From positions 949,331 through 1,013,330 of the forward strand of contig NZ_MRSV01000001.1 of NCBI RefSeq assembly GCF_001909285.1: DNA of 64,000 bases, in the 5' to 3' direction. The notes under the pieces are model-generated. The model was not told the DNA's origin, ran no database searches, and was given only the letters and a program-made list of their open reading frames with translations. Position 1 is the stretch's first letter, and each line of letters begins with the position of its first letter. This document shows positions 18,328-61,334 of this stretch, in pieces. Origin of the DNA: Exiguobacterium profundum. GTDB taxonomy: Bacteria; Bacillota; Bacilli; Exiguobacteriales; Exiguobacteriaceae. Both the position numbers and the translations under genes were made by a program.

Positions 18328-20175
18328 ATGATCGAGAACAACTTTTCAAACCGAGTATATCGTAAGCATCAAGAGAAACTGTTCGCGCTCGTACGGATGC
18401 CGATTGTAACGGAAGAAACGGTGCAGGAGGCAATTCTGTATATGTGTGAGATTGTCGCCGATATGTTGGCAGTCGATACAGTCTCGATCTGGCATTTTGA
18501 TACATCGCATCGATCTATTTCATGTCAAGTCGCTTATTCTCACGAATCAGGGACACATCATCCGAAGTTGACCGTCCATCGTGAACTCGCGCCTGACTAT
18601 TTTGATGCGCTTCAAACAGAGCGAATCCTTTCGTTTGAGGATGTTCGCAGTCATCCATGGGTGAAGGACTTGTACAAAGAGTACTTTGTAGAAGGAAAGC
18701 GTGTGTACTCCATGCTAGACGCTCCGATTTATGCAAACAATCGTGCCACAGGTGTGATTTGTTGCGAGACGTTTCTGCTTCGGGAGTGGAACTATCTTGA
18801 GGAATTGATTGTGAGTACACTTGCGGATTTTATTGCCATCCTGTACTTCCGGCTTGACCGGCAGCTTGTGGATGAACGGATTCATCAGTTAGCCTACACG
18901 GACGAACTGACAGGTTTGATGAACAAATATGCATTTGTCGAGGAAGTCGATCAATTACGTCAACAAGCGAGAGGGTTTTTAGGAGCAGTTTTATATATTC
19001 GAGCAGACGATTTTCGGTCTATTGAGGATGCGATTGGAACCGAAACATCGAATTTGATCGTGAAAGAAATGGCGAAACGACTACGAGCAGTAATCGATGA
19101 ATCTAGGATGGCACGTACCTCGCAATCGGGATTTGTCATTTGGGTACCTTACGGGGAACGGAGGAAAATACGTTCGTTTGCAGAACATTTATGCGAGCAA
19201 GTGACGCGTGCGCCATATCGAATCAATGAATTGGACGTTGTACTGACGACGAGTGCATTCATTTCCATTGAACATGAAAGTCGATCTACTTTGGATATGA
19301 TTCATACAACACGTGTCGTTGCAGGTCAATCAGATGAGAAACGTGGGGTCATCAAGTTTTTTGAAGAGGCCATGGCGCAAGAAGCATCTGAGAGACTCTT
19401 GTTAGAGATGAATTTACGTACTGGTGTGATATCAGGTCAGTTTGAACTGTATTTCCAACCGAAAGTGAATGCTTCCTCAGGTAAACTGAAAGGGTTTGAA
19501 GGGTTGATGCGCTGGAATCACCCAGAGCGAGGTCTCGTGCCGCCGCTCGACTTCATTCCGCTTGCCGAATCAACTGGTGTCATCATCGACTTAGAGGAAT
19601 GGGCGTTCGTGACGGCTTGTCGCCAGCTCAAACGTTGGCATGAACGGGGAGACCGGTATGAACTCGCCCTCAATTTATCGGCGCGTCACTTCTTATCCGA
19701 AGGGGTCGTCGAAAAGTTTGCCCAAATCGCAAGGGAAGAAGGGGTCAGTACGAGTTATTTGACCTTAGAAATCACGGAAAGCGTCGGGATGGAGAACCAG
19801 AAACACGTCATCGATCGTTTTGTTGCATTCCGAGAAGAAGGTTTTTCTATCTCGATTGACGACTTCGGGACAGGGTTCTCGGCGTTCGTCTACTTGAAGC
19901 ACTATCCGATTCATGAGATCAAAATCGATCGCCAGTTCATTCAAGTGACCGAGAATGACCCGACCGGCAACGTCATCGTCGAATCGATTGTCGATTTGGC
20001 ACGTGGCTTGAATTTGAAGACGGTGTGCGAAGGCGTCGAGACGCTTGAACAGTGGAACGCGTTACGCGAACTCGGCTGTGACGAGATGCAAGGATATTAT
20101 TTCTCTAGACCATTACCGCTTGAAGAACTTGAAGAATGGATTGTTGACTATACGACACAGAAAAGGGACGCCTGA
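18328..20175 (+). CDS. Cytoplasmic GAF / degenerate GGDEF / EAL phosphodiesterase
   Basis: 615 residues from ATG 18328 (GGGTGAGG upstream). No membrane helix. An N-terminal GAF domain (about 20-180; MLAVDTVSIWHFD, YSMLDAPIYANNRATGVICCE) is a small-ligand sensor. The GGDEF region (about 190-340) has TDELTGLMNKYAF, but the active loop reads RTSQSGFVIW, so cyclase activity is unlikely. The EAL domain keeps EGLMRW, NLSARHF, EITES, DDFGTGFSAF, KIDRQF and EGVET, so it should hydrolyse c-di-GMP. It is the second EAL protein within 7 kb, and its terminator contains a duplicated sequence (see 20161-21003). Confidence 0.87.
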   Translation: MIENNFSNRVYRKHQEKLFALVRMPIVTEETVQEAILYMCEIVADMLAVDTVSIWHFDTSHRSISCQVAYSHESGTHHPKLTVHRELAPDYFDALQTERILSFEDVRSHPWVKDLYKEYFVEGKRVYSMLDAPIYANNRATGVICCETFLLREWNYLEELIVSTLADFIAILYFRLDRQLVDERIHQLAYTDELTGLMNKYAFVEEVDQLRQQARGFLGAVLYIRADDFRSIEDAIGTETSNLIVKEMAKRLRAVIDESRMARTSQSGFVIWVPYGERRKIRSFAEHLCEQVTRAPYRINELDVVLTTSAFISIEHESRSTLDMIHTTRVVAGQSDEKRGVIKFFEEAMAQEASERLLLEMNLRTGVISGQFELYFQPKVNASSGKLKGFEGLMRWNHPERGLVPPLDFIPLAESTGVIIDLEEWAFVTACRQLKRWHERGDRYELALNLSARHFLSEGVVEKFAQIAREEGVSTSYLTLEITESVGMENQKHVIDRFVAFREEGFSISIDDFGTGFSAFVYLKHYPIHEIKIDRQFIQVTENDPTGNVIVESIVDLARGLNLKTVCEGVETLEQWNALRELGCDEMQGYYFSRPLPLEELEEWIVDYTTQKRDA

Positions 20176-20186
20176 GCGTCCCTTTT
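20161..20186 (+). terminator. Terminator of the GAF-EAL gene (left copy)
   Basis: AAAAGGGACGC (20161-20171) pairs with GCGTCCCTTTT (20176-20186) around a CTGA loop. A 21-base core of this hairpin is repeated exactly at 20983-21003. Confidence 0.9.
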
Positions 20187-20256
20187 AGAATTGTATATAT
20201 CAATATCTTTCACTCTTATAACTTACCTAAAGTTTAGATTGGGGACTCAAATACAT

Positions 20257-20916
20257 ATGAATAGCTCAACGCCACAACAGTCAACTCATGAAATTACTTT
20301 TTTTAGCCAATTTAAGAATTATATCTTGTTAGGGTTATTGGGAATTTTCTTGGGATTCTTAGATCAATATGCGAGTAGTTCCCCTTTGATTGATTTTGAT
20401 ACTACACTTGAGTTTTGGCTATTCCTAGTGACATTAGTAGCTGTGTTTAGCAAGTCACGATTAAACGCTTCCATTCATTCGATTATTTTGCTTGTTTCCA
20501 CAGTTTTAGCTTATTACCTAATGTTCTATTTGAACTTAGGATTCTTACCTTATCAACTATTTGGAATATGGCTAACTATCGCAGTCCTATCCTCTGTCTA
20601 TGCGTTAATCATTTGGAATGCCGGTAAAAGAGGGATAGGCGCCGCTATTTTAGGTTCAATACCTACTGCCTTTCTATTCAAACAAGGCTACTATTTTCTT
20701 CCAGATCTCTTATTTAATACTGAAGCAGCTCAAGTACGTATTCACTACTTTGGTATCGATATTCAAAGTGGATTTAATCTTGTGACTGCGGTTGTGCTTT
20801 ATTCAATATTTTTTAAGATAACAGAACGTCGAATCATTTTAACTGTTTCTACGGTTATCATATTCTTCATTTTTAAAGAAACTGGCATCCTGTCGTTTCT
20901 GCCTTTTCAAATATAA
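20257..20916 (+). CDS. AT-rich polytopic membrane protein of unknown function
   Basis: 219 residues from ATG 20257; an in-frame TTG at 20191 would add 22 residues but has no binding site. Even at 20257 the ribosome site (GGGG, 14 bases away) is poor. Six or seven hydrophobic helices are visible (such as YILLGLLGIFLGFL, FWLFLVTLVAVF, IILLVSTVLAYYLMFYL, IILTVSTVIIFFIF). Base composition is clearly more AT-rich than its neighbours, and the gene sits between two copies of a terminator, so it looks acquired. I do not recognise the family; it has no obvious catalytic motif. Confidence 0.6.
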   Translation: MNSSTPQQSTHEITFFSQFKNYILLGLLGIFLGFLDQYASSSPLIDFDTTLEFWLFLVTLVAVFSKSRLNASIHSIILLVSTVLAYYLMFYLNLGFLPYQLFGIWLTIAVLSSVYALIIWNAGKRGIGAAILGSIPTAFLFKQGYYFLPDLLFNTEAAQVRIHYFGIDIQSGFNLVTAVVLYSIFFKITERRIILTVSTVIIFFIFKETGILSFLPFQI

Positions 20917-20923
20917 AAAGAAA

Positions 20924-20966
20924 AGCATCTACTTTATTCGCGTTGAAATGAAGTAGGTGCTTTTTT
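20924..20966 (+). terminator. Terminator of the AT-rich membrane gene
   Basis: AGCATCTACTT (20924-20934) pairs with AAGTAGGTGCT (20951-20961), followed by T6. Confidence 0.8.
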
Positions 20967-20982
20967 GTCTATTTTTTGCAAA

Positions 20983-21003
20983 GGACGCCTGAGCGTCCCT
21001 TTT
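20983..21003 (-). terminator. Terminator of the histidine kinase gene (right copy)
   Basis: GGACGC pairs with GCGTCC around CTGA; on the minus strand it follows the kinase stop codon at 21005 directly. The left-hand stem is one G shorter than in the copy at 20161. Confidence 0.7.
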
Positions 21004-21004
21004 G

Positions 21005-22381
21005 CTATGTCATGAATGTGATTCGAATTGTGGTGCCGTGTCCCGGTGCACTGTCGACTTCTATTTTCCCGCCGTGGGCTTCGATGATGTCCCGTGAGAT
21101 GGCCATGCCGAGACCACTCCCGCGTGCGTCGTCTGTATTCGTGCCTCGGTAATAGCGTTCAAAGATATAGGGCAATTCGGATTCTGCAATCCCATTTCCA
21201 TCATCTCCAATCGTCACGACGTCACCCTCGATGTGGACTGTCACGTGCACCGAATCGTCATTATGGAGAAGAGCATTATACAAGAAGTTGAGCAAGGCTC
21301 GCTTCATAAAGTGACGATCGAGCGAGACGGTCGCTGCTTGAGTAGCCTCAAACTCGATGTGACGCTCCCCAAAGCGAGAATCGTTCAACACGTCGATGAC
21401 GAGCTCACGAACGAACGGCTCGAGGTTTGTCTCTTCGAGCGTAAGTGGGAAATCGCCGTGTTGCAGACGCATCGTCAAATTGAAATCGTCGAGCAGTTCC
21501 TTCATATACTTAGCCTGTCGTTCAATCACATGTACGTATTGTCTGTGCTCGGTGTCATCTAACGAATCATCATCAAGTAGTTCGGCGTAGCCTTGGATGG
21601 AGGCGAGCGGGGTCTTCAGGTCGTGAGATACGTTGCTCATCCACTCTTTTCGACGTTCTTCGAGTTCTTCGCGCTGACGTTCATACGTTTTAAGTGTCTG
21701 TGAGACGGCATTCAAATCATAGAAAACAGGACGGTAAATCCCTGACTGCTTCGGTTCGGTAGTCGAAAAATCACGTTGCTTCAGCTGTTGAATCCGTTCG
21801 GTCAAGCGATATACAGGGCGCGTCAATCGTGAACTGAACAATAAACCGATCAAGGCGGCGACAAGTAAATCGACAACTAGAATCCAGAAGAACGCCTTCG
21901 TGATATACGAAAGGACTGCCTGTTCGTCTAACATAAAGAGCACCCGACGCTCATTTGCCTCCGGCACACCGATGAGATAACTGTACGATTCATACTCCCC
22001 GATGAAGTAGAGTCGGAGGTCATCATCCATATATTTATACATTTGAATCAATTCGATTGGAGAATAGGCGTCTGGTAATCCACTCGGGGCATCGACCTCG
22101 CTGACGACACGTCCCGTCTCATCTAAAAAGCGGACGAATGCACCCGTTTGGCGAAGAGCTTCCCGCCCGGCTTCTGACACAACGGGTTCACCGTCCTCAA
22201 GCGATACATAGGTGCTGAAGTTTCGGGTGAAGGTCTCCCCGGCGTTGCTCTCGACATCATCAAGTCCCGTTCGATCATTGATAAGGAGGCCGAATAAGAT
22301 TGTAATGTTCAAGAAGACGACGAGCGCGACAATAAGGAGAATCGACAACAAATAGCGACCGGTCAGTTTCCATTTCATCAT
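21005..22381 (-). CDS. Sensor histidine kinase
   Basis: 458 residues. Two membrane helices (about 11-34 and 163-183) enclose a ~130-residue extracytoplasmic domain. A HAMP region follows (about 184-236), then HisKA with the phosphorylated H253 in NVSHDLKTPLAS, and an ATPase domain with N box NALLHNDDS, G1 GDDGNGI and G2 GSGLGMAI. Partner of the response regulator encoded 9 bases upstream. The divergent ABC transporter suggests that it controls a peptide-export or detoxification module. Unlike classic BceS kinases it has a sizeable external domain, so it may sense a ligand directly. Confidence 0.93.
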   Translation of the reverse strand: MMKWKLTGRYLLSILLIVALVVFLNITILFGLLINDRTGLDDVESNAGETFTRNFSTYVSLEDGEPVVSEAGREALRQTGAFVRFLDETGRVVSEVDAPSGLPDAYSPIELIQMYKYMDDDLRLYFIGEYESYSYLIGVPEANERRVLFMLDEQAVLSYITKAFFWILVVDLLVAALIGLLFSSRLTRPVYRLTERIQQLKQRDFSTTEPKQSGIYRPVFYDLNAVSQTLKTYERQREELEERRKEWMSNVSHDLKTPLASIQGYAELLDDDSLDDTEHRQYVHVIERQAKYMKELLDDFNLTMRLQHGDFPLTLEETNLEPFVRELVIDVLNDSRFGERHIEFEATQAATVSLDRHFMKRALLNFLYNALLHNDDSVHVTVHIEGDVVTIGDDGNGIAESELPYIFERYYRGTNTDDARGSGLGMAISRDIIEAHGGKIEVDSAPGHGTTIRITFMT

Positions 22382-58512: not shown

Positions 58513-58779
58513 TCATTTGACCGAAGCGTGCCCCACCTGACGTTTCCCGATGAACGTGAACGTGATCCCCAATGCCAAAAGGGGAAGGAGCCACCACTTC
58601 GTAAAGAAGAAGAGGGTGCCCCGATACATGAACCACTCCATGCCCAAGTAGGCGAAGAGCGTGATCAAGGGAGCGATAGACAAGCGCTTCAAGTGCAATG
58701 CGATGGCGACCCCTAGTCCGATCGTAAACGTTGGAACGATCACGAGTTGCCATAGAAACGGATCGATATAGTGAAACAT
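58513..58779 (-). CDS. Small membrane protein, DUF2651-like (copy 2)
   Basis: 88 residues behind AAGGAGG. Three hydrophobic helices; begins MFHYIDPFLWQLVIVPTFTI, nearly the same as its neighbour at 58839-59099. A polar tail GKRQVGHASVK follows. Resembles the DUF2651 (YbeF) type by size and start but I am not certain. Its end touches the T-box promoter. Confidence 0.6.
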   Translation of the reverse strand: MFHYIDPFLWQLVIVPTFTIGLGVAIALHLKRLSIAPLITLFAYLGMEWFMYRGTLFFFTKWWLLPLLALGITFTFIGKRQVGHASVK

Positions 58780-58838
58780 GGAGAGTCCTCCTTATAACGA
58801 TTAATCACGACACATCAGGCAGATTTTTTTGTTTTCAT

Positions 58839-59099
58839 TTATCCGACGAAGATGAACGAGAACAAGAGCGAAATCAGCGGGAAGATGACATTCCACGAAC
58901 TGAGATGGCTGACATCGAACGGACTGTGGTCATAATAGACGGCAAAGTACGTCAATTCGATGATGGCGTTCAACAAGAACGTCACCACAGGGCCGACCCA
59001 GACACGTTTCATGATCATGGCGACCACGACACCACCGCCGATGGTGAGAAACGGGACGATGACGAGTTGCCATAGGAACGGGTCGATATATTGAAACAT
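58839..59099 (-). CDS. Small membrane protein, DUF2651-like (copy 1)
   Basis: 86 residues behind AAGGAGG. Begins MFQYIDPFLWQLVIVPFLTI and is a tandem paralogue of the next gene; the middle and C-terminal parts have diverged (DHSPFDVSHLSSWN). Three membrane helices, no charged active-site residues visible. It lies 12 bases after the SH3/P60 hydrolase and is probably in its transcript. Confidence 0.6.
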   Translation of the reverse strand: MFQYIDPFLWQLVIVPFLTIGGGVVVAMIMKRVWVGPVVTFLLNAIIELTYFAVYYDHSPFDVSHLSSWNVIFPLISLLFSFIFVG

Positions 59100-59111
59100 G
59101 GAGCATCCTCC

Positions 59112-61334
59112 TTATAACGATTTGTACCCTAGGAAGTACGGGCGCCACATCGGGTCATGGATCGAGTTGATTTGAAGCATCTCGCCCCCGGCATGGATGA
59201 AGAACTCATCATCGAGCATGATGCCGATGTGCGATGGACCGGATTTATACGTGCCGGCGAAGAAGACGATGTCCCCGCGACGGCCACTCGTGATACCCGT
59301 CCGTTTGTTCTTGAAATGGCCGCTATGCCAGTAACCTGACACGTTCGTGCGACCGCCGATTTTACCGGCTTGATTCGTCGCGTAGTGGATGAGACCGGAA
59401 CAGTCAAAACCGCCGTTCAGCGGAGACTGTGAGCCCCACGTGTACGGTGTCCCGAGATGTTTCACCGCGACGGCAATCATGCGTTCTTTTTGTGAGTTGT
59501 CCCGTTTCTTCAACAAGGCATCTCGTTTGATGCGGATGTCTTTCGTCTTGACGTAGACGGGACGCCAGTCGTATTGGATGAGGTACGAGTCGCCACTCTT
59601 CCCACGCGGGTAGATGCGACGTCCGGCATCGAGATACCCGATCGGACGGGTGTCGTTCGGGTTGGCGTAGAACGGCGTCTTCTTCGTCGTCCCATAGTGG
59701 GCGGCCGTATAGACGCTCGCCGGTTGAATCGCCTTCGGTTTCGTCTCGGCGATATAGGGGTTCAACACGTACACGCGTTTCCCGGACGGAAGACGGACGT
59801 GCCAGAAGTCGGCATCAATCGAGCGGAGCCCGACGAGTTTCGTCCCACGGGGCAGAGTGCCGGCCGGACGACCGTACGCGACGTCAGCCGAGAAGTAAGG
59901 TGTCCCGTTGAACTGTGTATAGAAGACCGTTCCTACCTTCGGCTTCGCGGTCGGTTTCGAGACAGCGAGGTAGCCAGTCGCGACATAGCGATAGGCTCCG
60001 TTTAATCGGATGCGCGTGTAGTAACCGCTCGTCCCATATGTCTCGATGAGCTGACCTCGTTTCAATGAACCGACTTGTTTCGCGATTGAGGTCGAGGCGT
60101 ATACTTCGACCTCGTTATAACGGCTGTATCGTTTCCCTGTCGCTTCGAAGCGAGGTGGTTTTTTCGTACTCGTCACGCTCGTCGGGACGAAGTAATAGTT
60201 CCCTTTCGTGAAGATGCGGGTATAGCTTCCACGGGTGCCATAGATGTAGACGAGCTGACCCCGCTTCAGGGACAAGGTCGTCTTGGATGATTTCATCGTC
60301 CGAGCATAGACCGGTGTGTTCTTCGTGATGTACCGTTGTCCGGTTTTAAGATAAGGTGGCTCCGTCGTCCCAAGCGATGCGGATTCGACGAAGACATATT
60401 GTCCGTTGTAATAGACACGGGTGAAGAGACCGTCTGTCCCATAGATGCTGACGAGTTGACTCCGTTTGAGTGAACCGACGACTTGCTTCTTGTCTGTGTC
60501 TAAATAAATCGATGTCTCTTTTTGAGCATAACGGCTCCCCGTTTTAGCGTAGCGGGGCATCTTGGCAGCGAGTGCGTCTCGCTTCATATACACGTACATG
60601 CCATTTTGATAAAGGCGGGCCATCGAGCCATTTGTGCCATATACATTTACTCGTTTGCCCCGGACAATCGTCCCGACGATCTCTCCGTCCTCATTCATAT
60701 AAGAGGATGTCGTCAAGACGAATTGCGAGTCCGTCTTGAACGGGATTCGATTTGTCATCGAGAGCGGGATGTATCCGACAGTTCCATTTAGATCGACACG
60801 CATCTGTCCGTCGATGAGGAAGCCGTTCAAGGTTTGACCGGCTTCAAGCGGAGTCATGGTTCCACCATCTGGTGAAGACGAGAGAGTCGCTCCCTCTTTT
60901 GCGTAGCGGGTCACTGCCGCCGGGACCGTCTCTCCGAGAGCGTCACTGGAGACATATGTCCCGTCCGTCGTGAGGAGAAGGTCGCCTTCGATGTCGAAGA
61001 CGTCGACCGCTGTCCCGATGGCGAGTGTTGCGACTACATTTCCAGCAGCGTCGCGTGCATCCGTCTCCGTATGGACGTAACGGGTGACAGCGTATGATAA
61101 GGCGTCGTTTCGGACGAATCCTTTTTGTGAAGCGACGGTGACGGACGCATGGGTCTCGGTCACCTCATGGATATCCACACGCTCCGCTTGGTCTGTGACC
61201 AGGAGGACGACCGTTTCCTCTGAATCGGCATAGAGGGTCGTGCCGGCACGAAGCATGGCCTCAGATCCGACCGCTTGAGCGGTGAGTGTCCAATAGAAGG
61301 TAAAGAGAAAGAGCAAACTGAAGATTCGTTTCAA
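59112..61334 (-). CDS. Secreted multi-SH3 / NlpC-P60 peptidoglycan hydrolase
   Basis: About 740 residues. The GAGGTG site fits TTG 61334 best; ATG 61337 and GTG 61343 are alternatives that add 1-3 residues. A signal peptide ends near AQAVGS. About eight SH3-like repeats follow (each YGTxGxYTRIxxxGxYxYV or similar), then NlpC/P60 with the Cys in GGFDCSGLIHYA, His in PSHIGIM and the polar third residue in FIHAGGEM. No LysM is present, unlike the hydrolase at 16274. Its repeats contain many Y, K and R and may bind wall polymers. First gene of a transcript with the two small membrane genes. Confidence 0.9.
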   Translation of the reverse strand: MKRIFSLLFLFTFYWTLTAQAVGSEAMLRAGTTLYADSEETVVLLVTDQAERVDIHEVTETHASVTVASQKGFVRNDALSYAVTRYVHTETDARDAAGNVVATLAIGTAVDVFDIEGDLLLTTDGTYVSSDALGETVPAAVTRYAKEGATLSSSPDGGTMTPLEAGQTLNGFLIDGQMRVDLNGTVGYIPLSMTNRIPFKTDSQFVLTTSSYMNEDGEIVGTIVRGKRVNVYGTNGSMARLYQNGMYVYMKRDALAAKMPRYAKTGSRYAQKETSIYLDTDKKQVVGSLKRSQLVSIYGTDGLFTRVYYNGQYVFVESASLGTTEPPYLKTGQRYITKNTPVYARTMKSSKTTLSLKRGQLVYIYGTRGSYTRIFTKGNYYFVPTSVTSTKKPPRFEATGKRYSRYNEVEVYASTSIAKQVGSLKRGQLIETYGTSGYYTRIRLNGAYRYVATGYLAVSKPTAKPKVGTVFYTQFNGTPYFSADVAYGRPAGTLPRGTKLVGLRSIDADFWHVRLPSGKRVYVLNPYIAETKPKAIQPASVYTAAHYGTTKKTPFYANPNDTRPIGYLDAGRRIYPRGKSGDSYLIQYDWRPVYVKTKDIRIKRDALLKKRDNSQKERMIAVAVKHLGTPYTWGSQSPLNGGFDCSGLIHYATNQAGKIGGRTNVSGYWHSGHFKNKRTGITSGRRGDIVFFAGTYKSGPSHIGIMLDDEFFIHAGGEMLQINSIHDPMWRPYFLGYKSL

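What the first reader, a model, noticed from the sequence alone, without database searches (positions are those of the whole stretch)
20161..21003. AT-rich membrane gene inserted inside a terminator, flanked by a 21-bp direct repeat
The same 21-base terminator core lies at 20166-20186 and 20983-21003. Between the copies is one AT-rich gene with its own terminator and a poor ribosome site. The repeat looks like a target duplication, or an integration by recombination at a terminator, without any transposase or integrase. It may be a passive cargo site.
Basis: partly seen in the sequence, partly recalled or inferred. Interest (0 to 1): 0.6.

Follow-up and report, generated by a model that had tools for sequence, protein, structure and literature searches.

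The report
Captured gene between duplicated terminators
In one Exiguobacterium strain a small membrane-protein gene, cut from a three-gene set found on a plasmid-like contig of a related strain, has been inserted into the shared "stop transcription" hairpin between two facing genes, leaving a copy of that hairpin on each side although no mobility gene is present.

Summary
A 24-nt hairpin terminator (23 of 24 identical, 21 nt exact) lies at 20163-20186 and 20980-21003, and the 21-mer occurs nowhere else in the genome. Five related genomes have an empty site: one terminator between the same convergent EAL and histidine-kinase genes. So the repeat is a duplication made at insertion. The cargo is the last gene of a three-gene cluster (secreted protein, ~540-aa protein, ~220-aa membrane protein) found in only two other Exiguobacterium genomes. 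Here only the tail of gene 2, gene 3 and gene 3's own terminator arrived. The frame is intact, with pairwise dN/dS of 0.12-0.18. The insert has no transposase, integrase or terminal inverted repeats; the genome has no reverse transcriptase and the genus no Ku.

Another genome (G009) carries an unrelated ~180-bp insert at the same junction, between two copies of its own, different hairpin. The shared feature is therefore hairpin or position, not sequence. I infer hairpin-provoked, replication- or repair-coupled capture; a transposase or integrase acting in trans, or a decayed larger element, is not excluded. Beyond the window pair, 1.26 Mb of this chromosome gave one other terminator pair, not above chance. 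Real, unusual, not a demonstrated system.

The parts
18328..20175 (+). GAF-GGDEF-EAL gene; its TGA stop lies in the loop of terminator copy 1
20163..20186 (.). terminator copy 1 (AAGGGACGCCTGAGCGTCCCTTTT), left edge of the insert
20187..20194 (.). about 8 nt with no clear match to the donor relatives (junction filler or diverged donor DNA)
20195..20235 (+). remnant of the 3' end of gene 2 (the ~540-aa protein) of the donor cluster
20257..20916 (+). membrane-protein gene (219 aa), 88% and 68% identical to the third gene of the cluster in G009 and G016; stop shifted by two codons
20909..20976 (+). the inserted gene's own terminator (conserved in the donor relatives); the insert ends at its base
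20980..21003 (.). terminator copy 2 (AAAGGACGCCTGAGCGTCCCTTTT), right edge of the insert
21005..22381 (-). sensor histidine kinase gene, convergent with the EAL gene; its stop is just outside copy 2

Best explanation
A roughly 780-nt fragment of a three-gene cluster was captured once into the bidirectional terminator between two convergent chromosomal genes. The fragment holds the last ~40 nt of gene 2, all of gene 3 and gene 3's own terminator. The insertion copied the 24-26-nt target hairpin, so each resident gene kept a complete terminator. Shown: the insertion, the duplication, the empty sites, the donor cluster and the intact frame. Inferred: the insertion was a replication- or repair-coupled event provoked by the hairpin (fork stalling or hairpin breakage, switch to foreign DNA, return and re-copying of the hairpin) rather than the work of a dedicated transposase. 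Also inferred: the gene is kept because its product still gives a benefit, possibly self-protection (immunity) against the secreted protein of its parent cluster.
For: Empty sites with a single terminator in G016, G010, G013, G001 and G002, with flank matches overlapping by about 24 bases. The 21-mer is unique to this site. The donor cluster is present in G009 and G016 only, on a 61-kb contig with ParA-like genes in G016, and is absent elsewhere in the window's genome. Homology begins at the terminator on the left and ends at the base of the donor terminator on the right. G009 has an unrelated ~180-bp insert at the same junction between the only two copies of its own hairpin GGTTCGCCGCGGCGAACC, whose sequence differs from the window's; that argues for hairpin or position rather than sequence recognition. 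Genus-wide absence of Ku, no reverse transcriptase in this genome, and no matching inverted repeats at the two ends of the insert. Polarised changes on the window branch are 15 nonsynonymous to 20 synonymous with no stop, and pairwise dN/dS is 0.12-0.18.
Against: No intermediate or close donor was found, so the exact junctions are uncertain by about 10 nt on each side. A transposase or integrase acting in trans and since lost would leave a similar scar. Template switching usually leaves microhomology, and none is clear. No promoter-like site was found upstream of the gene on its strand, so expression is unproven. Part of the branch used for the selection estimate may predate the transfer.
Confidence: 0.45

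Rival explanations
1. The insert is the remnant of a larger integrated element (plasmid or integrative element carrying the whole cluster). A site-specific recombinase used the terminator as attachment site, leaving attL and attR as the 24-nt repeats; the recombinase and most of the cargo were later deleted.
For: Repeat length and palindromic arms suit an attachment-site core; the cluster lies near ParA-like genes in G016; gene 2 is cut to about 40 nt, as deletion would leave it.
Against: The G009 duplication at the same junction involves a different hairpin sequence, which one sequence-specific recombinase would not share. No recombinase or other element genes remain. The insert edges coincide with hairpin edges.
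Confidence: 0.2
2. A transposase supplied in trans moved the fragment as a passenger into the hairpin; the repeat is an ordinary target-site duplication.
For: Target-site-duplication-like repeat and clean empty site. Some insertion sequences do prefer extragenic palindromes (PMC1525189, read).
Against: No terminal inverted repeats. A 24-nt duplication is long for most transposases (own knowledge). No second copy of the fragment in this genome.
Confidence: 0.17
3. Homologous recombination: the incoming DNA already carried this terminator next to gene 3, and pairing at the terminator placed gene 3 between two copies.
For: The two copies are nearly identical; in the third case (YitT-ABM-EmrE) the two terminators are homologous in four genomes.
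Against: In both known donor clusters gene 3 is bordered by gene 2 and by an unrelated terminator, not by this hairpin.
Confidence: 0.12
4. Retroposition: an mRNA truncated at its 5' end and ending at its terminator was reverse-transcribed into a hairpin target by a group IIC intron reverse transcriptase.
For: The fragment is cut at the 5' side and ends near a terminator, the target is a terminator hairpin, and a duplication is present. Class C introns insert downstream of Rho-independent terminators (PMC3522654, read).
Against: No reverse transcriptase in this genome. Homology appears to run some nucleotides past the U tract of the donor terminator.
Confidence: 0.04
5. Assembly artefact.
For: Repeats can mislead assemblers.
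Against: The two copies differ by one base and the insert is unique sequence inside a 2.8-Mb contig.
Confidence: 0.02

Closest known systems
Insertion sequences that target repetitive extragenic palindromes (PMC1525189)
   Same: Insertion into an extragenic hairpin.
   Different: Those elements carry a transposase and occur in many copies at a repeated palindrome. Here a single fragment without any mobility gene sits in a unique terminator.
Group IIC introns (PMC3522654)
   Same: Target Rho-independent terminator hairpins.
   Different: They insert downstream of the hairpin and carry a ribozyme and usually a reverse transcriptase; no reverse transcriptase is in this genome, and duplication of the hairpin is not part of their described pattern.
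Elements integrated at a short attachment site (tyrosine recombinase type; own knowledge)
   Same: Cargo between two short direct repeats, with a clean empty site in relatives.
   Different: No recombinase. A second insert at the same junction duplicated a hairpin of different sequence.
Illegitimate recombination during natural transformation (own knowledge; not tested)
   Same: Can insert a random foreign fragment without a mobility gene.
   Different: A precise hairpin duplication is not its usual product.

Membership tests
Transposon or miniature inverted-repeat element | Terminal inverted repeats at the insert ends | tested here: not met
   no inverted repeat joins the two ends of 20187-20979; the only end-to-end match is the palindromic terminator itself
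Transposon or miniature inverted-repeat element | Target-site duplication with empty site in relatives | tested here: met
Transposon or miniature inverted-repeat element | Transposase in the element or further copies of the element | tested here: not met
   none in the insert or its neighbours; single copy in the genome
Site-specific integrated element | Recombinase gene next to an attachment site | tested here: not met
Site-specific integrated element | Same attachment sequence used in independent insertions | tested here: not met
   the G009 duplication has a different hairpin sequence
Group IIC intron or retroposition | Reverse transcriptase in the genome | tested here: not met
   (none in G000)
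Integron gene cassette | attC site and integron integrase | not tested
   The duplicated hairpin is a short terminator and was not compared with attC models; the integron integrase was not searched genome-wide
Known membrane-protein family (219-aa product) | Significant match to Pfam, NCBIfam or PHROGs | tested here: not met
   nothing significant (best DUF6518, E 0.12, for the G016 homologue)

The most novel reading that the evidence does not exclude
Transcription-terminator hairpins between convergent genes act as structure-dependent capture sites in Exiguobacterium. Foreign fragments inserted there duplicate the hairpin whatever its sequence, without a dedicated recombinase, so that incoming genes arrive already insulated between two terminators.
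Probability: 0.12. Interest if true: 0.75.

Novelty: new variant of a known kind. Interest (0 to 1): 0.4.

Why it matters
Many genes acquired by bacteria sit alone between core genes with no trace of how they arrived. Here the scar is preserved: a duplicated terminator and a donor cluster cut to its last gene. The same junction took an unrelated insert, with duplication of a different hairpin, in a second species. If hairpins provoke such captures, this gives a recombinase-free and easily searchable signature for gene gain, and one that leaves the neighbours' transcription stops intact.

Tried and rejected
Common repeat: rejected, two copies only in the genome. Generic terminator in G009: the same 18-mer is the aspS terminator in five other genomes, but G009 itself has it only twice, both at this junction. 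Transfer from another place in the same genome: no second copy of the gene or cluster. Reverse transcriptase and Ku routes: none found. Genome-wide cassette system: in 1.26 Mb of this chromosome and 400 kb of G009 the scan gave the window pair, the G009 pair, one new pair (YitT-ABM-EmrE) and a coding tandem repeat, against 0.32 expected. The window and G009 pairs were known beforehand, so what remains is not an excess. Early versions of the scan missed the window pair and were corrected (then 52). Plasmid, viral and other species collections gave no further homologue of gene 3. Structure prediction of gene 3 and of the secreted protein was too poor to use (pLDDT 45 and 48). Literature searches found no description of terminator duplication around acquired genes, which is weak evidence because only open-licence papers are held.

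Full report
What is there. The window is from an Exiguobacterium genome: its nearest relatives in the searches are named Exiguobacterium sp. s122 and s48. Two convergent genes, an EAL/GGDEF regulator (18328-20175, +) and a histidine kinase (21005-22381, -), are separated by 829 bases that contain the same hairpin terminator near each end. The copies are 20163-20186 and 20980-21003, 24 nt with one mismatch and 21 nt exact. The 21-mer was not found in any of 100 shuffles, and even with 3 mismatches there is no third copy in the genome. Both copies fold well on both strands. The interior is 35% G+C and holds one 219-aa membrane-protein frame followed by its own terminator.

Empty site. In G016, G010, G013, G001 and G002 the two flanking genes are separated by 20-22 nt (measured between the aligned gene ends) that form a single terminator. 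In G016 and G010 it is identical in sequence to copy 1 over the 24-nt hairpin. The left and right flank matches overlap by about 24 bases in the relative, the classical sign of a duplication made on insertion. Most of the more distant members of the genus also have a single, different hairpin there.

The cargo. Among 38 genomes of the family the gene occurs only in G000, G009 (88% identical) and G016 (68%). In G009 and G016 it is the third gene of a cluster: a secreted protein of ~210 aa, a ~540-aa protein, and the membrane protein. The cluster stands next to a coiled-coil gene and, in G016, on a 61-kb contig with ParA-like genes. The window's genome has no other trace of genes 1 or 2; only the coiled-coil neighbour has a homologue, on contig C11. 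Alignment shows homology starting near 20195, inside the last ~40 nt of gene 2, and ending near 20976 at the base of the gene-3 terminator, with about 8 and a few unassigned nucleotides at the two joins. The fragment is therefore gene 3 with its terminator, cut out of an operon.

Is the gene alive. The frame is intact. Pairwise dN/dS is 0.12-0.18. Changes polarised with G016 are 15 nonsynonymous and 20 synonymous on the window branch, and 9 and 21 on the G009 branch (difference not significant). The stop codon moved by two codons. No sigma-70-type site lies upstream on its strand. It is probably still functional, but expression is not shown.

Function. Gene 3 matches no family. Distant relatives of the secreted protein in other Bacilli are followed by a lipoprotein-like frame and then an ABC-transporter ATPase frame, which resembles the layout of bacteriocin clusters. 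I propose that gene 3 is a membrane protein serving the secreted protein, perhaps as its immunity protein, and that it was kept alone for that reason. This is inference only.

A second insert at the same junction. In G009 the EAL/histidine-kinase junction holds a ~180-bp insert with a 55-aa frame between two copies of GGTTCGCCGCGGCGAACC. These are the only copies in that genome, 198 bp apart. The insert has no DNA relative in the genus beyond the hairpin and flank. The outer stem pairs of the two copies differ by compensating changes, so the event is probably older than the one in the window. The hairpin sequence is unrelated to the window's, so what the two events share is the position and the hairpin structure. 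G007 has a further ~180-nt insert there without a duplicated hairpin.

How common. A scan for near-identical terminator hairpins within 6 kb of each other was run over 1.26 Mb of this chromosome (window included) and 400 kb of G009. It recovered the two known cases, one tandem duplication at the start of queC, and one new case: YitT, ABM monooxygenase and EmrE-type genes, with an identical 28-nt terminator on both sides of the ABM gene. In that case three relatives have the same order with two related terminators, and at least five others have YitT next to EmrE without the ABM gene and with a different terminator, so it is an older and less clear event. The expected number of chance pairs is 0.32. 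Since the first two were known in advance, this is no proof of a recurring process.

Mechanism. The ends of the insert carry no inverted repeats, no mobility gene is present, the genus lacks Ku and this genome lacks reverse transcriptase. A sequence-specific recombinase is made less likely by the different hairpin in G009. I favour hairpin-provoked, replication- or repair-coupled capture that copied the hairpin twice. Rivals (decayed integrated element, transposase in trans, recombination with a donor that had the same terminator) remain open.

Verdict. The observation and the prediction of an empty site are confirmed. The event is a well-preserved single-gene capture with duplication of a terminator, unusual but not shown to be a system.

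Noticed in passing
L028:1197-1413 (G009:C1:435247-435462): Unrelated ~180-bp insert with a 55-aa frame at the orthologous EAL/histidine-kinase junction, between two copies of GGTTCGCCGCGGCGAACC that occur nowhere else in that genome.
   Followed up: yes
L019/L030 (G007 EAL/histidine-kinase junction): A ~180-nt insert with hairpins of its own at the same junction, without duplication of the resident terminator.
   Followed up: partly
L123:17770-18215 (G000:C1 about 1191100-1191545): An identical 28-nt terminator stands on both sides of a small ABM monooxygenase gene between YitT and EmrE genes; the gene is missing between them in at least five other genomes of the genus.
   Followed up: partly
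L058:10150-10260 (G000:C1 about 190150-190260): A 56-bp tandem duplication and a run of 14 A at the start of queC; the listed queC frame begins only inside the second copy, so queC may be damaged, regulated by slippage, or misassembled.
   Followed up: partly
L109-L114: Distant relatives of the cluster's secreted protein in other Bacilli are followed by a lipoprotein-like frame and an ABC ATPase, and match no named family: possibly an undescribed bacteriocin-like cluster.
   Followed up: partly
G000:C11:74300-75050, L045:10048-10785, L046:10558-11031: A coiled-coil protein with a weak ribbon-helix-helix start stands beside different cargo genes on plasmid-like contigs; it may mark a cargo position.
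   Followed up: no
window 58655-59122: Two copies of a 148-nt stretch, 72% identical, 320 nt apart.
   Followed up: no
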